Shown in pieces: positions 13,886 to 64,000 of a DNA stretch of 64,000 bases. The position numbers and the translations under genes are program-made. Source of the DNA: Emticicia aquatilis (GTDB lineage: Bacteria > Bacteroidota > Bacteroidia > Cytophagales > Spirosomataceae); contig NZ_BMKK01000004.1 of NCBI RefSeq assembly GCF_014644295.1, positions 62,001 through 126,000 of the forward strand. The letters are read 5' to 3'. Position 1 is the stretch's first letter; each line of letters opens with the position of its first letter. The notes under the pieces are model-generated. The model did not search any database. It saw only the letters and a list, made by a program, of their open reading frames with translations, and had not been told where the DNA came from.

Positions 13886-14686
13886 TTACTCACAATTATA
13901 TTCAAATTTCGATTTGCTCGTCACGGTTTTTCCTTGATTTTCCAAAATGATATTCATAGTTACTGGGAAACCTTGTTCGTTATAAGATGTTTCTCTTGCA
14001 GTACGAATATCAGGCACTTCCTTGAATTCTAAATTTTGAATCGAATAAAACTTTGTACCTACGATATTATTGCTACCAAAAGGGATGAAACTATAAAGCG
14101 GGCGTAGCAACCAATAAAGCTGAATATCGGGAATGCCTTCAAAAAAATTACGTTTATCATCAAAATTATGCTCATTGATGGTAGCTAAGCTTCCAAAATC
14201 AGCCCTTGTGATTCTGAATGGATTTCCATTGGCATCATATTCAATCGTGCGATTTGGCCCGATTAGATTTAAACTTACAACGGCAGTAGGTCGATTTTTT
14301 TCGTCATACTCAAATATAATTTCGTTTGACTGCACATTGTTTGTAAGCTGAGTTGCTTTTTCAGCATTGCCCTTCGCATTATATGCAATATTAAAAAGTA
14401 TTATTCTTGTAAGATTTGATTCATCTCTAATTCGAGAGATTCTCCCTAATTCGTTATACTCAAAAAAGATTCTTTGACGGGCAGTTGTATCAGTACCATT
14501 TCGGAGGTCGTAGCTATAAATTTTATCAATTCTATTATTTTTTAATGAAATCAAATCATGATGAATAAGATTGGTAGAAGGAGTTTCGGTAACAAATTTA
14601 GCTAAACGACAAATTGGCTGTTGCTCCGTTTTCTGACATGACCAAAAACACAAACAAAAAATAATTAAGTAAACATTTGTTTTCAT
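13886..14686 (-). CDS. Putative lipoprotein with YD-like repeats
   Basis: A 266-residue exported lipoprotein: a hydrophobic signal followed by FWSC, with Cys17 as the likely lipidated residue. The mature part carries several short repeats of the form FEYNELGRISRI, FEYDEKNRPTAV and IEYDANGNPFRI, spaced about 40-45 residues apart. These resemble RHS/YD beta-hairpin repeats seen in Bacteroidota surface lipoproteins. No enzyme motif is visible. It converges on ispD with 1 nt between the stops and lies downstream of the amine oxidase gene. Specific function unknown. Confidence 0.6.
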   Translation of the reverse strand: MKTNVYLIIFCLCFWSCQKTEQQPICRLAKFVTETPSTNLIHHDLISLKNNRIDKIYSYDLRNGTDTTARQRIFFEYNELGRISRIRDESNLTRIILFNIAYNAKGNAEKATQLTNNVQSNEIIFEYDEKNRPTAVVSLNLIGPNRTIEYDANGNPFRITRADFGSLATINEHNFDDKRNFFEGIPDIQLYWLLRPLYSFIPFGSNNIVGTKFYSIQNLEFKEVPDIRTARETSYNEQGFPVTMNIILENQGKTVTSKSKFEYNCE

Positions 14687-58311: not shown

Positions 58312-58797
58312 TTACAACCATTGATACATCACAAAAGCATCAACCAAACCCAGCTTTTGATGCTGAAAAACTTTTGGTAAACGGCCAATAATTTCAAATC
58401 CGCATTTTTGCCAAAGCCTTACTGCAACCTCATTTGTACTAATCACAATATTAAATTGCATTGCCTTGAATCCCAAACGACGTGCTTCTTCTAATGAAAA
58501 CCTACACATCGTTTCTGCAATCCCCTTACCTCTTTGCTTGGGGTGAACTAAATAGCCTGCATTGGCTACATGAGAACCTAAATCAGGTTGATTTTGCTTG
58601 ATATAAAATGTACCAACAATTTTATTGTCAATTTCACATACATAAGCATATTTATCATCAGCTGACCAATAGGTAAGCATTTTCTCTCTGGAAGAGTATG
58701 GGGCAAAAACCAAAGTATCACCTTCTGCAACAACTAAATGTAATATTTCCCAAACTGCTTCTGCATCTTTTTCCTTATCAAAACTTCTTATATTCAT
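58312..58797 (-). CDS. GNAT-family N-acetyltransferase
   Basis: A 161-residue acetyl-CoA-dependent transferase. The GNAT core is visible: VGTFYIKQNQP, NAGYLVHPKQRGKGIAETMCRFSLEEARRLGFKAMQFNIV (motif A with the Q/RxxGxG/A loop), STNEVAVRLWQKCGFEIIGRLPKVF. The acceptor is unknown. It begins 1 nt after the methyltransferase gene and is probably co-transcribed. Confidence 0.9.
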   Translation of the reverse strand: MNIRSFDKEKDAEAVWEILHLVVAEGDTLVFAPYSSREKMLTYWSADDKYAYVCEIDNKIVGTFYIKQNQPDLGSHVANAGYLVHPKQRGKGIAETMCRFSLEEARRLGFKAMQFNIVISTNEVAVRLWQKCGFEIIGRLPKVFQHQKLGLVDAFVMYQWL

Positions 58798-58798
58798 A

Positions 58799-59539
58799 TT
58801 ACACTTTTTTTGCTATAAAAAAATTATCGTCCCAAGCATACGATTTCTTGGGCAAAAGATTAACTAATTCAAAACCTGTAATTTTTAAAAATAAGCTCAA
58901 TTCATCTTGCAAAAATGCACGCAGAGTAGAAAAATCTTCACCAATTTTTTCGTATTCGCCATCTTGATTTTTCATAAAATACTCCGATTCCCAATCCCAT
59001 GTCCAACCAAATTGTAGATTCTTCTTACTTTTACTTATTCTTTTGTATTCATTAGAACTATAGGTTGTCAATAATGTATCAAGTTTTTCATAAGTAAAAC
59101 CGACAAAAAGTTTGCTTGCATCAATGGCATCAAACATCAAAAGCCCGTCTTGCTTTAGGCCATTGGCAATACAATTAAATGCTTTGATTAAATCATTATT
59201 ACTCGTCAAATAGCTAATACTTCTACCTGTAATGATGACACAATCTTGCTTTTCTTGCAGCTCAAAATTTCGGGCATCAGCCTGACGAAATTTAGCCAAC
59301 GGAGCAGTCGTTTTTGCAATTTTCAGCATTTCATCAAACAGGTCAATTCCAAGATATTCGTATCCTGCTTCATGTAATCTTTTGGCTAAGTTTCCAGTCC
59401 CACAACCAATTTCAACAACGCTCTTAATCTCGTTTTCTTTTAAATGCTTATCGTAAAACTTAAACTCTTCGTCGTAATCAAACAGGGTTTGATATATTTC
59501 ATGATAAACATTCGCTAAATTTGTATATAATTTACTCAT
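58799..59539 (-). CDS. Class I SAM-dependent methyltransferase
   Basis: A 246-residue methyltransferase. Motif I is VVEIGCGTGNLAKRLHEAG near residue 41, followed by YLGIDLFDEMLKIAK and the acidic RQADARNFEL. The substrate is unknown. Organised as a two-gene minus-strand unit with the downstream acetyltransferase. Confidence 0.88.
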   Translation of the reverse strand: MSKLYTNLANVYHEIYQTLFDYDEEFKFYDKHLKENEIKSVVEIGCGTGNLAKRLHEAGYEYLGIDLFDEMLKIAKTTAPLAKFRQADARNFELQEKQDCVIITGRSISYLTSNNDLIKAFNCIANGLKQDGLLMFDAIDASKLFVGFTYEKLDTLLTTYSSNEYKRISKSKKNLQFGWTWDWESEYFMKNQDGEYEKIGEDFSTLRAFLQDELSLFLKITGFELVNLLPKKSYAWDDNFFIAKKV

Positions 59540-61064: not shown

Positions 61065-61593
61065 ATACCCTATAATGACAATCCTAAGAATATTCGACGA
61101 AACTAAATCCTAAGGGTTATATATATCGAATGGTTAGGTTTCAAGATAGAATATATCAATGTATGGAAATCTTCAACCATTGGGCAGCAAAATTTCATTC
61201 TATGAGGAAATAGAAGAATAATTAAATACTAATACTAAGATTGAGAATTGGTTCTGAATTTAGAACGAAAGAAATGCAAAAATAAATATATTGCCAAAAA
61301 TGATTAAGTGGTATCATTTTTGCAACATAAATATAAACATAATCAGTTTCTACAAGAGTTTTATCCAAACAATTGTAAAAACTTAGCAAAATGGCTTATA
61401 TATGACCTCTTGCTAATAAATAACAAGTTTCATGCCAAAAACTTAGAAATATTCAGATTTCGTTTTTTTTCATCAAAATCCTATCTAACGTTTCTTAAAG
61501 TAAATAGAGCAAACATTATGCCAAAGTACACACAACATTATAATCTATACTATTGAGATAATTACTATTGAGTGAACCATTAAAAAAGTTAAA
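61065..61593. other. Gene-free AT-rich region before the peptide cluster
   Basis: 529 nt without a credible gene. The one ORF here (61308-61556) has no supporting features. It contains three related GCCAAA words (61294-61299, 61434-61439 and 61520-61525) and the ATTGAGTG box at 61567-61574. It may hold the promoter region of the cluster. Confidence 0.45.
61567..61574 (+). promoter_or_regulatory. ATTGAGTG box 1 of the peptide cluster
   Basis: An octamer preceded by AATTACT. The same ATTGAGTG recurs at 61864-61871 and 62172-62179, and as ACTGAGTG at 63046-63053, each 0-53 nt before a cluster gene. Confidence 0.4.
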
Positions 61594-61773
61594 ATGACTA
61601 ACTTCGTACCCTTCGAAGTCTCGACTAATGAGATGAATCAAATGGTAGGTAGAAATTTCTGCTTAAGTAGGAATTTCTACTTTCCTAAGTTTACAGCTTC
61701 CCTGTTCAAACTTCTACAAGTATTTACAGTGCAAATTATGTGCCATGCTTTAGAGCGTGCCAAACTTTTTTGA
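61594..61773 (+). CDS. Divergent precursor peptide with GG-type leader (GG changed to GR)
   Basis: A 59-residue ORF just under common length cut-offs. Its first 20 residues, MTNFVPFEVSTNEMNQMVGR, align without gaps with the leaders of the three downstream peptides (MKNFDQFELSSTEMNNIDGG). Shared positions include Asn3-Phe4, Phe7-Glu8, Ser10, Glu13-Met14-Asn15 and Gly19. The next residues NFCLSRNFYF echo the TFCFGFNLSFNF start of peptide 1. The usual cleavage residue Gly20 is Arg, and the rest has only two Cys and one Pro. It is probably a decayed or specialised paralogue; processing by the C39 domain is doubtful. Confidence 0.6.
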   Translation: MTNFVPFEVSTNEMNQMVGRNFCLSRNFYFPKFTASLFKLLQVFTVQIMCHALERAKLF

Positions 61774-61795
61774 AAAATATTTTTTTCAAAAATTG
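61766..61795 (+). terminator. AT-rich hairpin after the divergent precursor
   Basis: TTTTTGAAAAA pairs with TTTTTTCAAAAA-type sequence just after the stop. Only A-T and one G-C pair contribute, so it would be weak. Confidence 0.35.
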
Positions 61796-61863
61796 GTGTC
61801 TATCCGTGTGCTAAAATTTGCTTGTAATTACCTCCAAGCAAGAAAATAATATTATAAATAATT

Positions 61864-61871
61864 ATTGAGTG
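61864..61871 (+). promoter_or_regulatory. ATTGAGTG box 2
   Basis: Part of AATTATTGAGTG, 40 nt before the start of peptide 1. It is followed by a CTTTTTAAAA segment that also occurs before peptide 3. Confidence 0.4.
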
Positions 61872-61903
61872 TATTCTTTTTAAAACAATTAATTAAAAAT
61901 CTA

Positions 61904-62158
61904 ATGAAAAATTTTGACCAATTTGAGCTTTCTTCAACCGAAATGAACAACATTGATGGTGGTACTTTCTGTTTCGGCTTTAATCTAAGTTTTAATTTTT
62001 GTGCTCCAAAACCTACTTACTGTGCACCAAAGCCAACAACCTGTACGCCACCAACAAACCCTTGTACTCCTCCACCTACTTCATGCACGCCTCCTAAAAC
62101 TTGTACGCCACCGCCAACAAGCTGTTTGCCTTCGGTAGTGAGTGCAACTGGGTACTGA
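61904..62158 (+). CDS. GG-leader Cys/Pro-rich precursor peptide 1
   Basis: An 84-residue precursor. Residues 1-20, MKNFDQFELSSTEMNNIDGG, form a classical double-glycine leader (LSxxEMxxIxGG) of the type removed by C39-peptidase transporters. The predicted 64-residue core has an alternating aromatic stretch (FCFGFNLSFNF), then Cys-Pro-Thr repeats (CAPKPT, CTPPPTS, CTPPKT), with eight Cys in total, and ends near CLPSVVSATGY. The ATG at 61904 is preferred; the frame extends to a TTG at 61865 that overlaps the regulatory box. No family was recognised for the core. Probable exported peptide, bacteriocin-like or structural. Confidence 0.8.
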   Translation: MKNFDQFELSSTEMNNIDGGTFCFGFNLSFNFCAPKPTYCAPKPTTCTPPTNPCTPPPTSCTPPKTCTPPPTSCLPSVVSATGY

Positions 62159-62171
62159 CATTTGAATATAA

Positions 62172-62201
62172 ATTGAGTGATATAAAACCGTGAACCTTTT
62201 T
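62172..62201 (+). promoter_or_regulatory. Box 3 plus shared 13-mer before peptide 2
   Basis: ATTGAGTG (62172-62179), then CGTGAACCTTTTT (62189-62201). The 13-mer is repeated exactly before peptide 3 at 62488-62500. Confidence 0.45.
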
Positions 62202-62224
62202 GAAACCTTATAAACATGATAGAT

Positions 62225-62473
62225 ATGAAAACTTTTGACCAATTTGAAATCACTTTAAATGAAATGAACAGTATTGAAGGCGGTACATTCTGCTTTGGTT
62301 TTAACTTTAGTTTTAACTTCAATTACTGTATTCCAAAAGTTACAACTTGTATTCCAAAAACTACCAGCTGTACACCAACTTGTCCGCCACCACCAACAAC
62401 TTGTACACCACCTAAAACTTGTACCCCGCCCCCTACTGGCTGTTTACCATCAGGAGGAACCTCAGGAAATTAG
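62225..62473 (+). CDS. GG-leader Cys/Pro-rich precursor peptide 2
   Basis: An 82-residue precursor. The leader MKTFDQFEITLNEMNSIEGG is 20 residues, ending in Gly-Gly. The 62-residue core starts TFCFGFNFSFNFNYC, then carries CIPKVTT, CIPKTTS, CTPT, CPPPPTT, CTPPKT, CTPPPTG and CLPS, eight Cys in total. It is the closest paralogue of peptide 1. The ATG at 62225 lines up with the other leaders; an ATG at 62216 would add three residues. The gap from peptide 1 is 66 nt. Confidence 0.82.
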   Translation: MKTFDQFEITLNEMNSIEGGTFCFGFNFSFNFNYCIPKVTTCIPKTTSCTPTCPPPPTTCTPPKTCTPPPTGCLPSGGTSGN

Positions 62474-62487
62474 TATAGTAAAATAAT

Positions 62488-62500
62488 CGTGAACCTTTTT
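62488..62500 (+). promoter_or_regulatory. Shared 13-mer before peptide 3
   Basis: CGTGAACCTTTTT, identical to 62189-62201. It starts 29 nt before the peptide 3 ATG. It may be a processing, translation or transcription signal, or just the trace of recent tandem duplication. Confidence 0.45.
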
Positions 62501-62516
62501 AAAAACACTAAAACAA

Positions 62517-62810
62517 ATGAAAAATTTCGACCAATTTGAAATCTCTACAATCAACACAAATAACGTAGAAGGTGGTACTTTTGGATTATTAGGATTATTA
62601 GGAACTTGTCTTCCAAAACCAACATGTTCACCAGTTCCAACATGTCCAACGCCAACTCCTCCACCTTGTTATACAGCACCAAAACCAACTTGTCCACCAG
62701 TTCCGACTTGTCCGACACCGACAACGAATATTTGCAAACCAACTATTTCGTTTTCATTCTCAATTTCATTTGGTGGTTGCAAACCTGTAACGCCTTGTTT
62801 ACCATCGTAA
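62517..62810 (+). CDS. GG-leader Cys/Pro-rich precursor peptide 3
   Basis: A 97-residue precursor with leader MKNFDQFEISTINTNNVEGG. The 77-residue core differs in order: it begins TFGLLGLLGTC, has two copies of the block PKPTC-x-PVPTCPTP, and carries the alternating Phe segment (ISFSFSISFGGC) near the C-terminus rather than the N-terminus. It ends CLPS, like the other two. Nine Cys are present. The leader keeps Phe4, Phe7-Glu8 and Gly19-Gly20. The conserved leader but shuffled core suggests selection for export with a changing payload. A terminator follows at 62834. Confidence 0.82.
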   Translation: MKNFDQFEISTINTNNVEGGTFGLLGLLGTCLPKPTCSPVPTCPTPTPPPCYTAPKPTCPPVPTCPTPTTNICKPTISFSFSISFGGCKPVTPCLPS

Positions 62811-62833
62811 TTTTTTTTAATAAGTATAGCTAT

Positions 62834-62867
62834 AAAAGCACTTTCGTCTTTTGAAAGTGCTTTTTTT
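62834..62867 (+). terminator. Terminator after the peptide genes
   Basis: AAAAGCACTTTC (62834-62845) pairs with GAAAGTGCTTTT (62853-62864), then T-run. It would uncouple the peptides from the transporter gene, or allow partial readthrough. Confidence 0.92.
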
Positions 62868-63045
62868 ATTAATATACGTAATCTATTACGATAGAAACTG
62901 TATTCATAAATATAACTATCCATTCTACTTTATTGGCTTAGTTTTTGTTTCCGATTGTATTATTGCTGAGGTGAGTAATTTGGCCATAATAAACATCTAT
63001 TATTGGCAACTTTACGTATCTACAATTACTATTAACCAAATTATT

Positions 63046-63053
63046 ACTGAGTG
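63046..63053 (+). promoter_or_regulatory. ACTGAGTG box at the transporter start
   Basis: ACTGAGTG (one mismatch from the ATTGAGTG boxes), preceded by AATTATT. It includes the GTG start codon. Confidence 0.3.
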
Positions 63054-64000
63054 AAAAAAGTTTTCCCACATTACCGTCAACTTGATGCAGTAGATTGCGG
63101 CCCTACTTGCCTACGTATGATTTCCAAGTTTTACGGTAAAAATTATAGTTTAGAATTTCTCAGAGACAAAACATTTATTACCCAAACGGGCGTATCCTTA
63201 GCAGGTATTAGTGATGGAGCAAAATCAATCGGTTTTCGTACGAAAGCAGTAAAGATACCATTCAAAATACTGCTCGAAGATGCTCCAAAGCCATGTATTG
63301 TTTTTTGGCGTCAACGTCACTTTGTAGTTGTCTATGAAGTTACGAAAACTCATGTAATGGTAGCAGACCCTGCTCTTGGCCTCGAAAAATATACACATAA
63401 AGATTTCTTAGAAGCATGGCACAATGGGGTTTATCCTGAAGATACTCCCGGCATTGCATTATTGCTTGAACCTACTCAGAAATTCTACGAAAGTGAAGAT
63501 GACAAACGTGAAGGGCTTTCTCTGAATTATTTTTGGGGATATTTACGTCCATACAAGCGTTTCTTTATACAAATTGGGGTTGGAATGCTGCTTGGAGCTA
63601 TTCTATCTTTCATCTTTCCGTTCTTGACCCAAGCAGTTGTTGACCGAGGCATTGAGTATCAGGATATGAATTTTATCTATCTGATACTTTTTGGGCAATT
63701 AGCTTTATTTTTCGGTCAAATGGTATCAAATTTCATACAAAACTGGATTTTGATGCTCATCAGCAATCGGGTGAATATTTCTTTGATTTCGGATTTTTTG
63801 GCCAAACTCATGCGACTACCGATTTCATTTTTTGAAACTCGTAATCAAGGTGATATTCTCCAGCGTATCAATGACCACACAATCATTCAAGATTTTTTGA
63901 CGAGTTCTTCACTGAGCGTTGTATTTTCAGTTTTCAATATGCTGATATTCAGCGTATTACTCGCAATTTTTAGTTTGCCAATTTTCCTTATATTCATCGT
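63051..64000 (+). CDS. C39-peptidase-containing ABC transporter (3' truncated by window edge)
   Basis: The frame starts with GTG at 63051 (read as MKKVFPHYRQLDAVDCGPTC) and is open to the window edge, 316 codons. The C39 peptidase domain has all catalytic residues: Gln10, Cys16 (DCGPTC), His90 (QRHFVVVYE) and Asp106 (ADPALG). The transmembrane domain begins near residue 170 (YLRPYKRFF..GMLLGAILSFIFPFLTQAVVDRG). Proteins of this kind cut GG leaders and export the cores with ATP. The ATPase domain is outside the window. It is 240 nt downstream of the peptide genes and is the likely exporter for them. No ATG start is available nearby. Confidence 0.92.
   Translation, partial: MKKVFPHYRQLDAVDCGPTCLRMISKFYGKNYSLEFLRDKTFITQTGVSLAGISDGAKSIGFRTKAVKIPFKILLEDAPKPCIVFWRQRHFVVVYEVTKTHVMVADPALGLEKYTHKDFLEAWHNGVYPEDTPGIALLLEPTQKFYESEDDKREGLSLNYFWGYLRPYKRFFIQIGVGMLLGAILSFIFPFLTQAVVDRGIEYQDMNFIYLILFGQLALFFGQMVSNFIQNWILMLISNRVNISLISDFLAKLMRLPISFFETRNQGDILQRINDHTIIQDFLTSSSLSVVFSVFNMLIFSVLLAIFSLPIFLIFI

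What the first reader, a model, noticed from the sequence alone, without database searches (positions are those of the whole stretch)
61594..64000. Candidate new exported-peptide system: Cys/Pro-rich GG-leader peptides with a C39 ABC transporter
Three tandem precursors share 20-residue GG leaders and have cores of 62-77 residues with 8-9 Cys and dense Pro/Thr. An ABC transporter with an intact C39 peptidase (Q10, C16, H90, D106) follows. GG leaders and C39 transporters are established partners; that these cores form a bacteriocin, signal or surface structure is inference. The Cys spacing (mostly CxPPxxxC-like) does not match lanthipeptide, microcin or pediocin families that I can name. No modification enzyme is seen before the window ends.
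Basis: partly seen in the sequence, partly recalled or inferred. Interest (0 to 1): 0.85.

Follow-up and report, generated by a model that had tools for sequence, protein, structure and literature searches.

The report
Exported cysteine-proline peptides with distant glycosyltransferase
This bacterial genome carries a rare family of small exported peptides rich in cysteine and proline, next to their own cleaving exporter, while a sugar-adding enzyme that appears to belong to the same system lies elsewhere in the genome; this hints at an undescribed kind of glycosylated secreted peptide.

Summary
Three tandem GG-leader genes (P1 61904-62158, P2 62225-62473, P3 62517-62810) precede a C39 ABC exporter with intact active-site residues; beyond the window TolC- and HlyD-type genes complete the exporter. 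P1-P3 show purifying selection (dN/dS 0.13-0.24) and the locus is syntenic in an Emticicia MAG. The ORF at 61594 lacks GG and is probably not a working precursor. P1-P3 have no Pfam or NCBIfam match over cut-off. The peptide family was found in 7 of 222 genomes of its taxonomic family. In 6 of these 7 a member lies within 2 kb of a GT2-type glycosyltransferase and a 250-aa protein; the 250-aa profile hit only those 6 of 222. In this genome that module is on another contig (C2), with a fourth precursor and upstream motifs shared with the window genes. A related GT sits in a pinensin-type lanthipeptide cluster. Best reading: a two-locus, GT-tailored, C39-exported peptide system. Export rests on homology and synteny; glycosylation of the window peptides in trans, and their role, are inferred. 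New variant of a known kind.

The parts
61594..61773 (+). ORF0: 59-aa ORF with a leader-like start but no GG and 2 Cys after it; probably a relic of a precursor or conserved upstream DNA
   Evidence: dN/dS 0.47 with low dS 0.28
61904..62158 (+). P1 precursor, 84 aa: 20-aa GG leader, 64-aa core (8 Cys, 16 Pro, 13 Thr, no Asp/Glu)
   Evidence: dN/dS 0.13
62225..62473 (+). P2 precursor, 82 aa: 20-aa GG leader, 62-aa core (8 Cys, 13 Pro, 14 Thr, no Asp/Glu)
   Evidence: dN/dS 0.16
62517..62810 (+). P3 precursor, 97 aa: 20-aa GG leader, 77-aa core (9 Cys, 20 Pro, 14 Thr, no Asp/Glu), with TFGLL and SFSFS parts shared with the C2-type members
   Evidence: dN/dS 0.24
62834..62864 (+). terminator-like hairpin after P3, before the exporter
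   Evidence: 13 pairs, T tail; pattern match only
63051..64000 (+). C39 peptidase-ABC exporter, GTG start, cut by the window end; the gene runs to 65243 in window coordinates (730 aa); TolC-type (65253-66551) and HlyD-type (66559-67935) genes follow
   Evidence: TolC by Pfam OEP over cut-off; HlyD by TIGR01843, E 1e-24 but 87.4 bits under its cut-off of 208.65
61567..61574 (+). upstream motif AYTGAGTG (within CTATTGAGTGAACC, which is also upstream of the C2 precursor)
61864..61871 (+). upstream motif AYTGAGTG before P1
62172..62179 (+). upstream motif AYTGAGTG before P2
62190..62201 (+). upstream motif GTGAACCTTTTT before P2 (GTGAACCTTAAA before the C2 precursor)
62489..62500 (+). upstream motif GTGAACCTTTTT before P3
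63046..63053 (+). motif AYTGAGTG overlapping the GTG start of the exporter

Best explanation
The locus makes and exports a small family of Cys/Pro/Thr-rich peptides. (1) P1-P3 are made with 20-aa GG leaders. (2) Inferred: in the cytoplasm a GT2-type glycosyltransferase with a 250-aa partner, encoded with a fourth precursor on contig C2 of the same genome (C2:117377-119581), attaches sugar to Thr, Ser or Cys of the cores. (3) By homology: the C39 domain of the window's exporter cuts after GG and, with the HlyD- and TolC-type proteins, moves the core across both membranes. (4) Inferred: outside, the remaining Cys form disulfides and give an acid-free, mucin-like crosslinked peptide. Its role (antibacterial, signal, surface coat) is open; I recognised no immunity gene beside it. 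So the window is one half of a two-locus, GT-tailored peptide export system.
For: Exporter trio complete and syntenic in a second genome; C39 residues present. Leaders of P1 and P2 have hydrophobic -4, -7, -12 and Glu at -8, as described for C39 substrates (PMC6363468, passages). Purifying selection on P1-P3. Precursor family in 7 of 222 family genomes (six of the seven had rows in the profile, G498 was new to it; four further genomes hit weakly and are not members). The 250-aa profile hit 6 of 222, all among those 7, and none of the other 215 (five had rows in the profile, G498 was new). The GT profile hit 7 of 222: the same 6 plus G470. GT and 250-aa (or 271-aa) genes overlap by 4 bp or lie 1-5 bp apart in all 7. 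The same precursor type lies by C39, HlyD- and TolC-type genes in G010, G060, G069, G056 and G498 (HlyD and TolC there named by eye). G470's GT and a possible relative of the 250-aa protein sit in a pinensin-type cluster. Window genes and the C2 precursor share upstream motifs. Two C39 proteins were found in the genome at E up to 0.001.
Against: No modification enzyme seen next to P1-P3; tailoring in trans is inferred. G060 has precursor and exporter but no GT (E up to 1e-20) and no 250-aa protein (E up to 1e-5). The co-occurrence count is partly circular, since the GT and 250-aa families were collected beside precursors; the hypergeometric 4.5e-11 corrects neither for that nor for relatedness. 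Family-linked exporters fall in three separate places of the exporter tree, so they did not simply descend together with the peptides. P3 has Thr at -7 and Asn at -8; of the five C2-type leaders checked, four have Ala or Thr at -7. GT donor and acceptor are unknown; the 250-aa protein matches nothing over cut-off.
Confidence: 0.55

Rival explanations
1. P1-P3 are unmodified, disulfide-crosslinked structural peptides (a coat, sheath or adhesive) exported by their own C39 system; the C2 glycosyltransferase pair serves only the C2 peptide.
For: No enzyme seen at the window locus, nor GT or 250-aa protein in G060; repetitive Cys-Pro-Thr cores whose repeats drift; no confident fold for P1 (mean pLDDT 45; only six sequences); no immunity gene recognised.
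Against: P3 and the C2 peptide share TFGLL and SFSFS parts and upstream motifs; no exporter was seen on the 11 kb around the C2 peptide and only two C39 proteins were found in the genome.
Confidence: 0.25
2. A glycocin-like bacteriocin: the GT glycosylates Cys, Ser or Thr of a Cys-rich peptide that inhibits other bacteria.
For: GT near a C39 exporter and a Cys-rich precursor is how glycocin clusters were sought in PMC12457901 (passages); an odd number of Cys in 9 of 15 members leaves at least one Cys out of intramolecular disulfides.
Against: No match named as a peptide S-glycosyltransferase among the NCBIfam hits of four GTs or the 22 PDB sequences up to E 10; no immunity gene recognised; Pro-rich cores are unlike the helical glycocins (recalled).
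Confidence: 0.15
3. The ORFs are chance open frames in Pro/Thr-rich low-complexity DNA and the exporter has another cargo.
For: Cores are low in complexity; the 61594 ORF looks poorly constrained.
Against: dN/dS 0.13-0.24 with third-position bias in P1-P3; GG leaders; members in seven genomes.
Confidence: 0.03

Closest known systems
Glycocins (sublancin, glycocin F, thermoglycocin)
   Same: C39 exporter, glycosyltransferase and Cys-rich precursor (PMC12457901, passages)
   Different: the GT here matches GT2 and Glyco_transf_7C Pfam models and no named S-glycosyltransferase family; a 250-aa partner; Pro/Thr-rich cores of 60-77 aa; HlyD/TolC export; locus split over two contigs in this genome
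Pinensin-type class I lanthipeptide cluster of G470
   Same: related GT beside a 271-aa protein (weak similarity to the 250-aa family), Cys-containing precursor, C39 exporter, HlyD-type gene
   Different: G470 has LanB-N, SpaB-C and LanC-like genes and a pinensin-type leader over its NCBIfam cut-off; none of these was seen at the window or C2 loci
TIGR04149 (GG_sam_targ_CFB) radical-SAM-modified peptides
   Same: the leader of P1 aligns to the model
   Different: 17.6 bits against a cut-off of 25; no radical SAM gene recognised near P1-P3
RiPP clusters with GlyS (peptide S-glycosyltransferase) hits reported in Bacteroidales (PMC10352776, passages)
   Same: glycosyltransferase in Bacteroidota peptide clusters, C39 exporters in most clusters they detail
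   Different: those carry rSAM and LanC genes as well; no sequence comparison with this GT was made
C39/HlyD/TolC peptide export (type I secretion)
   Same: same three components and GG leaders
   Different: cargo family has no match over cut-off in Pfam or NCBIfam

Membership tests
GG-leader peptide with C39 type I export | GG leader with hydrophobic -4, -7, -12 | tested here: met
   P1 and P2 fully; P3 has Thr at -7
GG-leader peptide with C39 type I export | C39 domain with catalytic Cys, His, Asp fused to an ABC exporter | tested here: met
   PF03412 109 bits over cut-off 22; Q10, C16, H90, D106
GG-leader peptide with C39 type I export | HlyD-type adaptor and outer-membrane TolC | tested here: met
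   adjacent genes; OEP over cut-off; HlyD by TIGR01843 at E 1e-24 but under its curated cut-off
Glycocin | glycosyltransferase encoded with precursor and C39 exporter | tested here: inconclusive
   together in G010, G056, G069, G498; split over two contigs in G000 and G008; not found in G060
Glycocin | GT of the SunS/ThuS type | tested here: inconclusive
   no such name among the NCBIfam hits of four GTs or 22 PDB hits; whether these libraries hold SunS is recalled, not checked
Glycocin | sugar on Cys, Ser or Thr | not testable with these tools
   needs mass spectrometry
Class I lanthipeptide | LanB and LanC next to the precursor | tested here: not met
   none recognised among listed ORFs of C4:122000-141000 or the 11 kb at C2; the two LanB C-terminal domains found in the genome are on C11
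TIGR04149 rSAM-modified RiPP | score over cut-off and rSAM partner | tested here: not met
   17.6 of 25 bits; no rSAM gene recognised by eye at the locus
SpaB_C / thiopeptide-type domain (for the 250-aa protein) | profile similarity to PF14028 | tested here: not met
   hhalign against 15 SpaB_C domains: probability 0.3% (thin profile, Neff 2.4); no PF14028 hit

The most novel reading that the evidence does not exclude
A new class of glycosylated exported peptide: Cys/Pro/Thr-rich cores decorated by a GT2-family enzyme with a dedicated partner of unknown fold, matured in trans across two loci and exported by interchangeable C39 transporters; the GT-partner pair is a portable tailoring module that has also entered a pinensin-type lanthipeptide cluster.
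Probability: 0.4. Interest if true: 0.75.

Novelty: new variant of a known kind. Interest (0 to 1): 0.6.

Why it matters
If right, it adds a glycosylated peptide family in Bacteroidota; PMC9576775 (2022, passages) counts ten experimentally identified glycocins, in Bacillota. It points to a glycosyltransferase with a partner of unknown fold, whose relative stands in a lanthipeptide cluster, and to precursors and tailoring enzymes on different contigs, which mining by gene cluster would miss.

Tried and rejected
ORF0 as a fourth precursor: no GG in either genome, 2 Cys after the leader-like part, dN/dS 0.47 overall. C39 cleavage after Gly-Lys has been shown (PMC12457901, passages), so a missing GG alone does not exclude it; I think it unlikely. 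The 250-aa protein as a SpaB_C-like domain (suggested to me by its FFFFFDSERG stretch): comparison with 15 SpaB_C domains negative; rejected at this sensitivity. Exporter co-inherited with the peptides: the tree of 44 exporters puts family-linked ones in three places; rejected. That tree took 44 loci: of the 45 loci, L018 and L019 (no exporter) and L063 (same place as L020) were left out and L020 and L139 put in; L058, L067, L089 and L091 gave no exporter by my pattern, L062, L069, L071 and L074 gave two each. One search was a first attempt with too narrow a pattern (15 proteins) and was replaced. Weak precursor hits in G338, G025, G487 and G482: one search read two of them on the wrong strand; reread, G338 and G025 are other GG peptides and the other two have no such ORF. 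L014 and L017 show no GG peptide. L140 and L141 were fetched and not studied. Fold of P1 from six sequences: mean pLDDT 45, not used. Rfam: four weak hits, each far under its gathering score. No match to the C2 precursor or the 250-aa protein in plasmid records; phage and viral collections not searched. Drawn samples: first precursor profile over 390 order genomes hit 3 (G000, G056, G069); later profile over 375 phylum genomes hit only the own genome; 250-aa profile over 375 class genomes hit only the own genome. How many of the 222 family genomes were in these draws is not shown.

Papers: nine searches in an open-licence library; in the listings shown, which for several searches are a small part of the hits, I saw no description of this family or of the GT pair. 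Singh and Rao 2021 on glycocins beyond Firmicutes, seen only in a reference list, is not held and may bear on novelty. PMC10352776 reports GlyS hits in some Bacteroidales clusters (passages), which lowers the novelty of glycosyltransferases in Bacteroidota peptide clusters as such. PMC12181424 (passages) held nothing of use.
Full report
What is there. The window is G000:C4:62001-126000 of a 6.75 Mb genome in 36 contigs. At 61904-62810 three small genes code for peptides with 20-residue GG leaders (P1, P2, P3; 84, 82 and 97 aa) and cores of 64, 62 and 77 aa with 8, 8 and 9 Cys and 16, 13 and 20 Pro. A C39-ABC exporter starts at GTG 63051, directly after a stop codon in its frame, and runs to window position 65243; a TolC-type gene follows after 9 bp and an HlyD-type gene 7 bp later (families). 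The exporter keeps Q10, C16, H90 and D106. A terminator-like hairpin lies between P3 and the exporter. The ORF at 61594, where the finding begins, has a leader-like start without GG.

Are the genes real. The same locus, in the same order with the same neighbours, is in a MAG named Emticicia sp. HJF.15. Between the two genomes P1-P3 show dN/dS of 0.13, 0.16 and 0.24, the exporter 0.01, TolC 0.04, HlyD 0.02; the 61594 ORF shows 0.47 with a low dS of 0.28 (NG86; YN00 gave no value for whole P1-P3), so that stretch is more likely conserved DNA or a relic than a working gene.

A family. Six of the seven had rows in the profile; G498 was new to it. Four more genomes passed 0.01 weakly; two are other GG peptides and two are no such ORF. 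Samples from the order (390) and phylum (375) added no further genome. The 14 rows share F4, GG and three further invariant positions (C33, P35, C74 of P1); P3 and the C2-type members also share TFGLL-like and SFSFS-like parts. Of 15 members, 13 have no Asp or Glu in the core and 9 have an odd number of Cys. Of 43 loci fetched around C39 exporters and scanned for Cys-rich GG peptides, 6 held this type; others held different GG peptides or none that the scan recognised. So the layout is common and this cargo rare.

The missing enzymes. This genome has a fourth full member on contig C2 (117377-117622), near a Crp-type regulator, a 250-aa protein and a glycosyltransferase with GT2 and Glyco_transf_7C matches. 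Precursor, 250-aa protein and GT also lie within 2 kb of each other in G008, G010, G056, G069 and G498, and in G010, G056, G069 and G498 the C39 exporter, HlyD- and TolC-type genes are in the same stretch (HlyD and TolC there named by eye). Over 222 genomes the 250-aa profile hits six, all with the precursor (five had rows in it, G498 was new); the GT profile hits those six and G470. Because these two families were collected beside precursors, the telling part is that they were found in none of the other 215 genomes, G470's GT excepted, and that G498 has all three. G060 has precursor and exporter but neither enzyme at the thresholds used, which counts against an obligate role. GT and partner genes overlap by 4 bp or lie 1-5 bp apart in all seven (start of the partner in G498 chosen by me). 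In G470 the GT and a 271-aa gene with weak similarity to the 250-aa family (hhalign probability 32%, E 5e-4) stand in a cluster with a pinensin-type precursor, LanB-N, a stand-alone SpaB-C, a LanC-like gene, a C39 exporter and an HlyD-type gene. That puts a relative of the pair in a recognised peptide-tailoring cluster.

Link between the two loci. The motif AYTGAGTG occurs 9 times on both strands of the window; 4 lie on the + strand within 1.5 kb, before ORF0, P1, P2 and at the exporter start (Poisson 5e-6, for a motif chosen after seeing it). CTATTGAGTGAACC before ORF0 is also before the C2 precursor, with close forms in G008 and G010; GTGAACCTT before P2 and P3 is also before the C2 precursor. 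The motifs were not found before the precursors of G060, G056, G069 and G498. Two C39 proteins were found in the genome; the other serves a LanB/radical-SAM-like locus on C11 with its own precursors. So the window's exporter is the likelier one for the C2 peptide, and the C2 GT pair a candidate for P1-P3. This is inference. The exporter tree warns against simple co-inheritance: the window's exporter groups with the LanB-locus lineage (99/96), G010 with G060, and G056, G069 and G498 elsewhere.

How it may work. Leader recognition and cleavage after GG by C39, with hydrophobic residues at -4, -7 and -12, follow PMC6363468 (passages) and fit P1 and P2 best; P3 and most C2-type leaders depart at -7. 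The Thr/Pro-rich, acid-free cores would suit O-glycosylation; odd Cys numbers would suit S-glycosylation or bonds between molecules. Neither is shown. No fold could be predicted for P1.

Against known systems. Glycocins share GT, C39 exporter and Cys-rich precursor (PMC12457901, passages), but no match named as SunS-type was seen. Lanthipeptide and TIGR04149 membership failed at the window. I file it as a new variant of a known kind: a GG-leader, C39-exported, probably GT-tailored peptide family.

Noticed in passing
L004 (G000:C11:12000-31000): A LanB-type protein (1054 aa), an M16-type peptidase-like protein, a radical-SAM-like protein, a C39 exporter and a short HlyD-type gene with at least three GG precursors ending in SCCKGSC; a second LanB C-terminal domain lies at C11:42756-43508 (most names by eye).
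   Followed up: no
L150:8311-10277 (G470:C6): Related GT plus a 271-aa protein inside a pinensin-type lanthipeptide cluster: possibly a glycosylated pinensin relative.
   Followed up: partly
L139 about 13900-14300 (G498): Broken remnant of a second precursor at the place where G069 and G056 have an intact second precursor whose core holds some acidic residues.
   Followed up: partly
L018:7693-10917 (G000:C2): Long protein with many near-identical internal repeats next to the GT of the C2 locus.
   Followed up: no
L077:8414-9274, L078:8528-9435, L139:13014-13841: GldC-like and HTH-type genes between exporter and GT in the three genomes of genus g23 (GldC by Pfam for L077; the rest by eye); a Crp-type regulator, in two pieces in G069, lies beyond the precursor.
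   Followed up: no
window 61548-61775: The stretch around ORF0 is unusually conserved between window and MAG (up to 75 of 80 identical) while the DNA further upstream is not.
   Followed up: partly
window 58312-59539: Methyltransferase-like and acetyltransferase-like ORFs on the - strand, syntenic in the MAG; not linked to the peptides by any test.
   Followed up: no
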